A DNA stretch of 41,186 nt from the NCBI GenBank assembly GCA_034439615.1, contig JAWXAT010000033.1:1-41186 (forward strand), read 5' to 3'. The position numbers and the translations under genes are program-made. Source of the stretch: Oligoflexia bacterium. GTDB taxonomy: Bacteria > Bdellovibrionota > Bdellovibrionia > JABDDW01. This document shows positions 7,555-37,067 of the stretch, in pieces. Below the pieces are notes generated by a model. That model saw only the letters and a program-made list of their open reading frames with translations. It searched no databases and was not told the origin of the DNA. How positions within the stretch are numbered: the stretch's first letter is position 1; every line of letters begins with the position of its first letter.

Positions 7555-8778
7555 ATGCAAGACAACTCACATAAAAGTCGTTGGACGATATTCGCATTTG
7601 GGCTTTTACTTATTCTTGGTTGTAACTCCGGAAATGCACTTAATGGTCTTCCAGTTCCATCGGCACTATCACCGAGCCCCACACCCAAACCAACTGCTTC
7701 GCCAAATCCTTCTCCGGGCGCATCGGCTTCGCCCACGGCATTTCCAAATCCATTTCCTTCGCCTTCACCTTCTGCGTCAGCTACGGCGACTCCGATTTTT
7801 TCGCCTTTTCCATCGCCATCACCTTCTCCCTCACCGACACCTTTTACAAAGGTTGAAAAATTTTGGTTTAGCCCTGAACCCGGCAGTGACCACGCCGAGA
7901 TGTTCGAAAGACCCGATGAGTGGAGTACTGCTCGTTCAAAAATGGATATCATGTACATTGCAAGTCACTCGCTTTATCCAACATGTGGCCCCATTTGCAA
8001 AAACAACACGTGGGCTCGCATGGTGGAAGTACAAGCATTTCAAAAATTAAAACAATGGGATATCCCACTTTATCTCGCCGTGGGTTCAGTGAAACCTGAA
8101 ATTCATTGTGATGCAAAAATCTACGCTCGAGATGCGGTGGATTTATACATTAAGGGAATAAAAGACAATGGTGGTTTGGTTAAAGGACTCACCATGGATT
8201 GGCCTTTGTCTGCCGGCTCTGAGACTTGCGGCCAAACAATGGAAGAAACAGCAAACCATGTTGTGAATTATGTAAAAACAGTAACCGATGGTTACGCACT
8301 TCACCATCCGGGCCAAAAAATTGATATTGGAACATGGGAAGGCACTCCAACTTTCACGGCTGACCAACTTATTACTTGGATGAATTTATTGATTTCAAAA
8401 GGTTACAAACCTCATCACTTTATTGCCGACTTTGATCATGAAAGATTTCGCCGTGAAGGAAAACTTCCACTCATGAGAAGTTATCTTCTTAAACTGCAAA
8501 ATTATTGCCGAGCAAATGGGATTTTGTATGGCGTCGCCATTTGGGGAAATGATCTTCGAAGTCCAACGACTTATTATGCACAGGCAAGAAAATACGCACA
8601 GGAAGTCAAACGCGCCACTGGCGGCCCTGATTTTATTCAAGTGATTAGCTGGGAATATTGGGTCCAAAAACAAAATGCTGGAGATGTGTTTCCATATAAT
8701 TTGCCAGAGACTGACCCTTTAAGTCATACGCATTTCTTCTCAGAGATGCTTCAGTATTTCAAAGTTCCTACTTTGTAA
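7555..8778 (+). CDS. lipoprotein with Pro/Ser linker and TIM-barrel-like domain
   Basis: A 407-residue lipoprotein. The signal peptide ends in a lipobox (LILGC, Cys23). Residues about 33-103 form an SPSPTP-type Pro/Ser/Ala linker that would hold the folded part away from the membrane. The C-terminal 300 residues carry aromatic-rich segments such as GLTMDWPLSAGSE, IDIGTWEG, HFIADFDHERF, YGVAIWG and VISWEYW. These look like successive strands of a beta/alpha barrel with acidic residues at strand ends, as in glycoside hydrolases, but I cannot name a family. No Shine-Dalgarno motif precedes the ATG; TATTCT lies 6 nt upstream, so the transcript could be leaderless. The 3' end overlaps ygfZ by 11 bp, tail to tail. 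Confidence 0.8.
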   Translation: MQDNSHKSRWTIFAFGLLLILGCNSGNALNGLPVPSALSPSPTPKPTASPNPSPGASASPTAFPNPFPSPSPSASATATPIFSPFPSPSPSPSPTPFTKVEKFWFSPEPGSDHAEMFERPDEWSTARSKMDIMYIASHSLYPTCGPICKNNTWARMVEVQAFQKLKQWDIPLYLAVGSVKPEIHCDAKIYARDAVDLYIKGIKDNGGLVKGLTMDWPLSAGSETCGQTMEETANHVVNYVKTVTDGYALHHPGQKIDIGTWEGTPTFTADQLITWMNLLISKGYKPHHFIADFDHERFRREGKLPLMRSYLLKLQNYCRANGILYGVAIWGNDLRSPTTYYAQARKYAQEVKRATGGPDFIQVISWEYWVQKQNAGDVFPYNLPETDPLSHTHFFSEMLQYFKVPTL

Positions 8779-35969: not shown

Positions 35970-36218
35970 TTAATGACCTTCACCATCAGCATGTTTATGA
36001 CCGTCAGTTGTATCATGCGCAGCATCTTTAGCGGCCTTAGTTGTTTTTGTCTTTTTAGTGGTCTTTGTAATTTTCTTTTTTGCAACTTTATCATTATCTT
36101 TTGTGGCTGGAGCTTCTGCAGCATTGGTTTCAGTTGTGGTGGTTTGGGTATTGGTTTCTTCAGCAACTGCCACGAGGCTCAATGCCGTTATAGCAATAAT
36201 GACGAGTAACTTTTTCAT
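35970..36218 (-). CDS. small exported Thr/Lys-rich, His-tailed peptide
   Basis: 82 residues from ATG 36218, which has GGGAGA upstream. Residues 1-19 are a signal peptide; the rest is low complexity: Thr/Glu-rich, then KKKITKTTKKTKTTKAAKD, then a His/Asp/Gly-rich tail (AHDTTDGHKHADGEGH, five His). The tail could bind metal ions (Zn, Ni or Cu). No family is recognised. It is monocistronic with its own promoter and terminator. Confidence 0.75.
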   Translation of the reverse strand: MKKLLVIIAITALSLVAVAEETNTQTTTTETNAAEAPATKDNDKVAKKKITKTTKKTKTTKAAKDAAHDTTDGHKHADGEGH

Positions 36219-36264
36219 TTGATCTCTCCCTTGAAAAGCCATGATTGGCTTAGTCTCGTCTGGC

Positions 36265-36293
36265 AGAATGGTAAGAACGCTATTATTTGTCAA
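36265..36293 (-). promoter_or_regulatory. promoter of the His-rich peptide gene
   Basis: On the minus strand a perfect TTGACA (36288-36293) and CATTCT (36265-36270) are 17 bp apart, about 47 bp upstream of the start at 36218. Confidence 0.55.
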
Positions 36294-36307
36294 GTATTGG
36301 AAACGAG

Positions 36308-36337
36308 TTGATTTAATGCGATAAGTCAATCTATGAT
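36308..36337 (+). promoter_or_regulatory. promoter of the Lys/Ala-rich helical protein gene
   Basis: TTGATT (36308-36313) and TATGAT (36332-36337) are 18 bp apart. The predicted start near 36344 lies upstream of the ATG at 36371 but downstream of the GTG at 36338, which supports the shorter reading frame. Confidence 0.55.
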
Positions 36338-36370: not shown

Positions 36371-36730
36371 ATGGCAGAAGAAAAAAAAGAAGAAACTGCA
36401 AAAAAATCAGCTACTGATTTTTTTCGTGAGAAACTCTCAAACAAAGAACAAATTAAAGAAACAGTTCTTGAGGGTTTAAAAAGCACCAATTCACGGGTTC
36501 GTGCGTTGGCTGTAAAAACAGCGTTTAAACTTCAAGATCATCCATTTGTGAAAAAGAATGTTATGCCCCTTATTCAAAGTGATAAGAGCAAAAAAGTTCT
36601 TCGCACACTTTCACAAAAAGTAACACGCAAAGATCTCGTCAAAAAGATGGATGATCTCATTGCTGCTGCTAAAAAAGCTGCCGCTGCAAAAAAAGAAGCA
36701 GCTGATGCACCACCAGCTGACAAAGTTTAA
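36371..36730 (+). CDS. Lys/Ala-rich helical protein with histone-H1-like tail
   Basis: 119 residues from the ATG with AGGAGG 4 nt upstream. The N-terminal 20 residues are Glu/Lys-rich. About 20-85 are helices with a HEAT-like rhythm (LEGLKSTNSRVRALAVKTAF, then HPFVKKNVMPLIQSD, then KKVLRTLSQK). The C-terminus is Lys/Ala/Pro-rich (AAAKKAAAAKKEAADAPP), resembling eukaryotic H1 and bacterial AlgP-type tails that bind DNA. The family is not recognised. It is convergent with the histone gene and shares its terminator. A nucleoid role is only a guess from composition and neighbourhood. Confidence 0.75.
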   Translation: MAEEKKEETAKKSATDFFREKLSNKEQIKETVLEGLKSTNSRVRALAVKTAFKLQDHPFVKKNVMPLIQSDKSKKVLRTLSQKVTRKDLVKKMDDLIAAAKKAAAAKKEAADAPPADKV

Positions 36731-36753
36731 TTAATTTTCTTAAAACGAAAAAC

Positions 36754-36781
36754 AAAACCCATGGGTAAAACCATGGGTTTT
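36754..36781. terminator. bidirectional terminator between the Lys/Ala-rich and histone genes
   Basis: A perfect 11-bp stem (AAAACCCATGG / CCATGGGTTTT) with a 6-nt loop, flanked by A and T runs on both sides. It lies between the convergent stops at 36730 and 36813 and can serve both strands. Confidence 0.85.
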
Positions 36782-36812
36782 GTCTTATTATTAACTATTT
36801 AAATTTTTAATA

Positions 36813-37007
36813 TCACAGATCCCCTGCACGTACGGTTTTACGACCATTTGATTTCGCGCGCACAACAGCTTTTGACAAATGGTGTTCTACGAGACTGGTT
36901 AAGCCCTTAACAACATCACTTGCACAATTCATTTTATTCTTTTTAATGAAAGCTTTAACTTTGGACTGAACTACTAATGCGGGTCCACCGCCACCTTTTT
37001 TTGCCAT
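36813..37007 (-). CDS. bacterial histone (singleton histone fold, Bd0055-like)
   Basis: 64 residues. After a Lys/Gly N-terminus (AKKGGGG), helix 1 covers about 11-23 (VVQSKVKAFIKK), the long helix 2 about 28-54, and a short helix 3 follows the signature NGRKTVRAGDL at the very end. Arg56 and Asp63 keep the 7-residue spacing of the Arg-Asp salt bridge of archaeal histones, and Thr58 the 'RKT' loop. No C-terminal extension of helix 3 is present, as in the Bdellovibrio histone Bd0055, which is known to coat DNA. AGGAG lies 8 nt before the ATG. A strong promoter and terminator indicate abundant expression. Confidence 0.9.
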   Translation of the reverse strand: MAKKGGGGPALVVQSKVKAFIKKNKMNCASDVVKGLTSLVEHHLSKAVVRAKSNGRKTVRAGDL

Positions 37008-37037: not shown

Positions 37038-37067
37038 ATTATGCGAAACATTGTGCTCTAAAGTCAA
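37038..37067 (-). promoter_or_regulatory. strong promoter of the histone gene
   Basis: On the minus strand TTGACT (37062-37067) and CATAAT (37038-37043) are 18 bp apart, each 5 of 6 to consensus. The -35 overlaps the stop codon of the upstream hydrolase gene, so the histone can be expressed separately. Confidence 0.6.

What the first reader, a model, noticed from the sequence alone, without database searches (positions are those of the whole stretch)
36813..37007. Singleton bacterial histone with its own strong promoter and terminator
The 64-residue product has the full histone-fold order and the NGRKTVRAGDL loop with Arg56-Asp63 at the spacing of the archaeal Arg-Asp salt bridge, but ends right at the start of helix 3. 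True histones are rare in bacteria; Bd0055 of Bdellovibrio bacteriovorus is the studied example. The Gly-run N-terminus (KKGGGG) and single Cys28 at the head of helix 2 are details worth comparing.
Basis: partly seen in the sequence, partly recalled or inferred. Interest (0 to 1): 0.8.

Follow-up and report, generated by a model that had tools for sequence, protein, structure and literature searches.

The report
Second, archaeal-type histone in Bdellovibrionia bacterium
This small bacterial gene encodes a real histone, but of the kind thought to form DNA-wrapping tetramers and most like those of certain archaea, and the same genome also carries the known DNA-bending Bdellovibrio histone, so one bacterium seems to keep two different histone systems.

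Summary
The gene is real: a 64-aa protein on the minus strand (37007..36813), with a promoter conserved in two relatives, a Shine-Dalgarno site and a strong terminator. It is a true alpha3-truncated histone (AF2 mean pLDDT 87; best PDB folds HLp, then HBb/Bd0055 and HTkC). The short third helix is the family norm, not a defect.

It is not the genome's only histone and not the Bd0055 counterpart. The Bd0055/HBb orthologue lies on another contig (45% identical). The window protein carries the face-to-face (FtF) tetramer signature R50, N54, R56; HBb-types have aspartate (once glutamate) at the N54 position in all 60 genomes examined. With those columns masked, the 107-row tree still splits FtF from HBb/ZZ (100/100).

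It sits in a small Bdellovibrionota subclade with Cys28 and an unusually basic fold (+7 to +9). Its nearest outside relatives are DPANN archaeal FtF histones (up to 69% over the fold). Transfer from archaea is only suggestive; AU tests reject no alternative.

Likely function: a homotetramer wrapping about 50-60 bp of DNA, beside HBb dimers and four HU-family proteins. Tetramer, wrapping and expression are inferred. A new member of a known kind, in an unusual two-histone combination.

The parts
36813..37007 (-). FtF-type histone gene, 64 aa (ATG 37007..37005, stop TGA 36815..36813). AF2 helices 14-23, 32-53, 61-63; tetramer-interface residues R50, S53, N54, R56; RD clamp R56-D63; DNA-face residues S15, K16, K18, K22, K57, T58
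   Evidence: residue roles from PMC12701072
37016..37021 (-). Shine-Dalgarno AAGGAG, 8 nt before the ATG
   Evidence: read directly; equivalents upstream of the relatives' genes
37038..37067 (-). sigma-70-like promoter TTGACT-18-CATAAT
   Evidence: conserved in L003 and L004
36749..36786 (-). intrinsic terminator: 16-bp stem, 6-nt loop, T-rich 3' end
   Evidence: -22.8 kcal/mol, z -6.5
36371..36730 (+). convergent Lys-rich 119-aa gene of unknown function; convergent neighbour of the histone gene in all three genomes of the family (not part of the histone itself)

Best explanation
The gene encodes an alpha3-truncated histone of the face-to-face (FtF) class, working as a nucleoid protein. Two chains pair through helix 2 into a histone dimer. 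Two dimers then join at both ends through R50, S53, N54 and R56 and the one-turn helix 3 to give a ring-shaped tetramer with a basic rim, around which about 50-60 bp of DNA wraps without sequence preference. It acts beside the genome's HBb (Bd0055-type) dimer, which has aspartate at the N54 position and therefore should stay dimeric and only bend DNA. Shown here: gene, fold, interface residues, subfamily placement, a second histone in the genome, conserved promoter and locus. Inferred from HLp: tetramer, wrapping, nucleoid role. Not shown: expression, abundance and division of labour with HBb.
For: R50, N54, R56, T58, D63 and K16 are invariant in the 64-row FtF alignment. R and N at the two interface positions occur in all 10 FtF-type proteins of the 60 genomes, against D (once E) at the N position in every HBb-type protein. 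The tree separates FtF from HBb+ZZ at 100/100 with both diagnostic columns masked. The FtF profile finds HLp at 8.8e-21, HTkC at 2e-14 and HBb at 7e-14. Foldseek ranks HLp first (TM 0.83-0.85, rmsd 0.8-0.9 A). In HLp, R49, S52, N53 and R55 build the tetramer interface and about 60 bp is wrapped (PMC12701072); in HBb the aspartate at that place salt-bridges its own RD-clamp arginine instead (PMC11317129). Lysines that touch DNA in HLp are kept (K16, K18, K22). Net charge is +11 for 64 aa.
Against: No multimer prediction could be run. A monomer model cannot show a tetramer, and HBb fits it nearly as well (TM 0.79-0.83). With single-sequence phmmer HBb scores slightly better than HLp (E 1e-6 against 2e-5). 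At three HLp interface or DNA-contact positions the residue differs (T27 to Cys28, G29 to Ser30, T61 to Gly62). The archaeal FtF tetramer HTkC appears to have Glu at the N position (alignment), so N may not be strictly needed. No expression data.
Confidence: 0.8

Rival explanations
1. It is a duplicated, diverged Bd0055/HBb-type dimer histone that bends DNA, and its FtF-like residues are convergent.
For: Same short fold, 45% identity to HBb; HBb is the best single-sequence PDB hit. An AU test with the window clade held with HBb/ZZ is not rejected (p 0.28). FtF-type sequences sit at the base of the HBb clade, so the two groups are related.
Against: The FtF/HBb split has 100/100 support in the 107-row tree with the interface columns masked. 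Nearest sequences outside the phylum are FtF histones at up to 69%, HBb 45%. N54 and R50 are invariant in its clade.
Confidence: 0.1
2. It forms mixed dimers or tetramers with the HBb paralogue of the same cell, as a modulator of HBb chromatin and not a chromatin former of its own.
For: All three genomes of the family keep both genes; both have the same helix-2 dimer fold.
Against: In family f14 of the phylum, four genomes with the window-type histone (G277, G279, G280, G281) show no other histone match in the search, so it does not need HBb there. Only 45% identity between the paralogues. No test of pairing was possible.
Confidence: 0.08
3. The gene is a binning or assembly contaminant from an archaeon.
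For: The closest sequences outside Bdellovibrionota are DPANN archaeal.
Against: It lies inside a 41-kb contig of bacterial genes. trxR, SDR, ferredoxin, methyltransferase, the convergent gene and the histone lie in conserved order in two further genomes, with conserved promoters. The window type also recurs in families f13/f14.
Confidence: 0.01

Closest known systems
HLp, FtF histone of Leptospira perolatii (PDB 9QT0-9QT2; PMC12701072)
   Same: Fold (rmsd 0.8-0.9 A), length, one-turn helix 3, interface residues R/S/N/R, RD clamp, alpha1 lysines, short disordered N-terminal tail
   Different: 41% identity over the fold; T27 replaced by Cys28, F63 by Leu64; far more basic fold (+9 against +3); in Leptospira it is the only histone and HU is reported absent, here it lives beside HBb and four HU-family genes
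DPANN archaeal FtF histones (Aenigmatarchaeota L084/L085, Diapherotrites L087, Micrarchaeota L092)
   Same: Up to 69% identity over the 54-residue fold, same interface residues, same RAxDL ending
   Different: Thr or Met instead of Cys28, no or minimal N-terminal tail, archaeal hosts; uncharacterised
HTkC, FtF histone of Thermococcus kodakarensis (PDB 9F2C)
   Same: FtF fold and class; solved tetramer
   Different: Low identity; two-residue insertion in loop L1; Glu at the N54 position in the alignment
HBb / Bd0055 of Bdellovibrio bacteriovorus (PDB 8FVX, 8CMP, 9EZZ)
   Same: Same histone fold, same class of host, RKT loop and RD clamp
   Different: 45% identity; Asp instead of Asn54 and no Arg50; stays dimeric and bends DNA; its true orthologue is the other gene of this genome (L002)

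Membership tests
Face-to-face (FtF) histones | Interface Arg and Asn (R48/N52 of the FtF HMM; R49/N53 of HLp) | tested here: met
   R50, N54; invariant in 64 of 64 FtF rows
Face-to-face (FtF) histones | RxTxxxxD motif with RD clamp | tested here: met
   R56-K-T58-V-R-A-G-D63
Face-to-face (FtF) histones | Helix 3 of only 3-4 residues and shortened helix 2 (alpha3 family) | tested here: met
   AF2/DSSP helices 14-23, 32-53, 61-63; pLDDT above 90 in the fold
Face-to-face (FtF) histones | Groups with FtF sequences, apart from bacterial dimers | tested here: met
   100/100 split with the diagnostic columns masked; profile hit order HLp, HTkC, HBb. Caveat: in the 77-row tree three FtF-type rows fall on the HBb side, and an AU test does not reject window clade + HBb
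Face-to-face (FtF) histones | Torus-shaped homotetramer | not testable with these tools
   Only monomer prediction on hand; inferred from interface residues
Face-to-face (FtF) histones | DNA wrapping (50-60 bp) | not testable with these tools
   Inferred from HLp; DNA-contact lysines conserved
Bacterial dimer histones (HBb/Bd0055) | Lack of the interface Arg and Asn (in HBb, Asp at the Asn position) | tested here: not met
   The window protein has Arg50 and Asn54; HBb-types have D (once E) in all 60 genomes
Bacterial dimer histones (HBb/Bd0055) | Sequence clustering with HBb | tested here: not met
   the HBb orthologue is L002
ZZ histones | N-terminal ZZ zinc finger | tested here: not met
   Only about 10 residues precede the fold
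Nucleosomal (HMf-type) archaeal histones | Long helix 2 and about 10-residue helix 3 | tested here: not met
   HMfB TM only 0.58; Pfam CBFD_NFYB_HMF 13.6 bits, below its 21.4 cut-off

The most novel reading that the evidence does not exclude
A Bdellovibrionota lineage took an FtF histone from DPANN archaea, separately from the main bacterial FtF clade, and now runs two mechanistically different histones in one cell: an HBb dimer that bends DNA and a highly basic, Cys28-bearing tetramer that wraps it, possibly assigned to different growth stages.
Probability: 0.25. Interest if true: 0.65.

Novelty: new member of a known kind. Interest (0 to 1): 0.42.

Why it matters
Only two bacterial histones, HBb and HLp, have been characterised in depth, and each stands for one assembly mode. 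Here both modes are encoded in one genome, and the two proteins differ at the position (Asn against Asp) that can be read as the tetramer/dimer switch. That makes a direct test possible of how a bacterium divides DNA packing between a bender and a wrapper. The literature places FtF histones mainly in class Bacteriovoracia and dimers in Bdellovibrionia (PMC11390915); ten of 60 sampled genomes of this class carry both types. The window clade also blurs the reported clean separation of bacterial and archaeal FtF histones (PMC12701072).

Tried and rejected
Contaminant contig: rejected by synteny in three genomes. Bd0055 orthology: rejected. Defective histone lacking helix 3: rejected, family norm. 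Mobile-element origin: no match in plasmids or phage records; only two distant viral-contig relatives, 44% and 32%. Transfer from archaea: suggested by identity and the first tree, but one clade with the other bacterial FtF histones is not rejected (AU p 0.43 and 0.41) and the second tree leaves the position open. Pfam and NCBIfam: no family reaches its cut-off for this protein. dS is saturated, so dN/dS could not be given for pairs with the window gene. No tRNA and no Rfam match anywhere in the window.

Full report
What is there. The minus strand at 37007..36813 encodes MAKKGGGGPALVVQSKVKAFIKKNKMNCASDVVKGLTSLVEHHLSKAVVRAKSNGRKTVRAGDL. An AAGGAG lies 8 nt before the ATG, a TTGACT-18-CATAAT promoter at 37067..37038 and a 16-bp terminator hairpin at 36786..36749 (z -6.5). 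The promoter pair alone would be within chance, but the same arrangement is upstream of the counterpart genes in L003 and L004 at otherwise diverged sequence, and each gene ends in its own terminator. The gene evolves under strong protein-level constraint: third codon positions differ at 61-65% against 9-17% at first and second positions in comparisons with the window gene.

It is a histone. Single-sequence phmmer finds the Bdellovibrio histone (E 1e-6), HLp (2e-5) and HTkC (0.003) in the PDB. Pfam's general histone model misses its cut-off (13.6 against 21.4 bits), as a diverged short member would. AlphaFold2 with 64 aligned sequences gives helices 14-23, 32-53 and 61-63 with high confidence and a disordered tail 1-7. 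Foldseek's best solved structures are HLp (TM 0.83-0.85, rmsd 0.8-0.9 A), HBb and HTkC, far ahead of HMfB (0.58). The 'missing' helix 3 is the defining trait of alpha3 histones, whose helix 3 has 3-4 residues (PMC11390915).

It is not the genome's only histone. A second one lies on contig C31, 45% identical over the fold and of the HBb/Bd0055 type. Among the 60 genomes searched (own included, all of one class) all have an HBb-type histone; 43 have only that, 8 also have an FtF-type, 7 a ZZ-type and 2 all three. The own genome also has four HU/IHF-family genes. That the class is Bdellovibrionia is inferred from the record titles of the matching contigs and from the HBb genes themselves.

Which kind. 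Schwab et al. (PMC11390915) describe FtF histones by an interface arginine and asparagine that bacterial dimers lack. Hu et al. (PMC12701072) show R49, S52, N53 and R55 of HLp making the tetramer. The window protein has R50, S53, N54 and R56 at these places. In HBb the aspartate at the asparagine position instead forms a salt bridge inside its own chain (PMC11317129). All ten FtF-type proteins of the 60 genomes have R and N; HBb-types have D there in every case but one E. With these two columns masked, a 107-row tree separates FtF from HBb plus ZZ at 100/100. An FtF profile matches HLp best (8.8e-21).

Relatives and origin. The closest named records are two Oligoflexia MAGs (L081, L082), a Bdellovibrionales MAG (L083), then Aenigmatarchaeota (L084, L085: 69 and 65% over the fold) and other DPANN archaea. 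The two Aenigmatarchaeota contigs share neighbouring genes with each other, so both look archaeal and not misbinned. A phylum-wide search added members in families f13/f14. All nine clade members tested have Cys28 at the place of the DNA-contacting T27 of HLp, and a fold charge of +7 to +9, against a median of +3 for the ten FtF-types of the 60 genomes and +4 for HBb-types. The clade is firm (99/97), but its place is not: one tree nests it beside Aenigmatarchaeota (95/77 and 92/68), the other leaves it open, and AU tests do not reject joining it to the main bacterial FtF clade (p 0.43, 0.41) or even to HBb/ZZ (p 0.28). With 52-55 columns this question cannot be settled here.

Locus. Thioredoxin reductase, SDR, ferredoxin, methyltransferase, a convergent Lys-rich gene and the histone lie in conserved order in both other genomes of the family. 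The histone is thus a settled chromosomal gene and not a contaminant. Searches of plasmids and phage records found nothing.

How it most likely works (inference from HLp, confidence 0.8): dimers pair into a ring tetramer and about 50-60 bp of DNA wraps its basic rim. HBb in the same cell would bend DNA as dimers. Whether the two are expressed together, alternate or mix is unknown.

Novelty. The kind is known (FtF alpha3 histone). New here, as far as the papers searched show, are the FtF plus HBb combination within Bdellovibrionia and the archaeal-like, Cys28-bearing, highly basic subclade. Literature coverage is limited to open-access papers, and supplementary tables could not be read, so some of these sequences may already be listed there.

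Noticed in passing
window 36371-36730 (+): Lys-rich 119-aa protein of unknown function with an H1-like AAAKKAAAAKKEA tail, convergent with the histone gene in all three genomes of the family and nearly absent from 57 other relatives (weak matches in G037 and G016).
   Followed up: partly
window 35970-36329 (-): Small protein with a signal-like start and a Lys/Thr-rich, His-ending tail (KKKITKTTKKTKTTK...DGHKHADGEGH); no family reaches its cut-off.
   Followed up: no
L188, L180, L103: FtF-type histones (R and N kept) from Bdellovibrionota and a deltaproteobacterial MAG fall at the base of the HBb/ZZ clade, which would fit dimer histones having arisen from FtF histones by losing the tetramer residues.
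   Followed up: partly
L007, L008, L010, L016, L095, L118, L141, L158: Other bacterial FtF histones carry 15-40-residue Lys/Thr/Ala-rich N-terminal tails, whereas the window family has almost none.
   Followed up: no
L121, L123: Marine Group II archaeal records encode a doublet (two histone folds in one chain) with FtF-type residues R and N in both folds.
   Followed up: no
window 7555-8778 (+): Protein with a lipoprotein-like start and a long Pro/Ser/Ala repeat linker (PSPSPSPSPTP), followed by an uncharacterised C-terminal domain.
   Followed up: no
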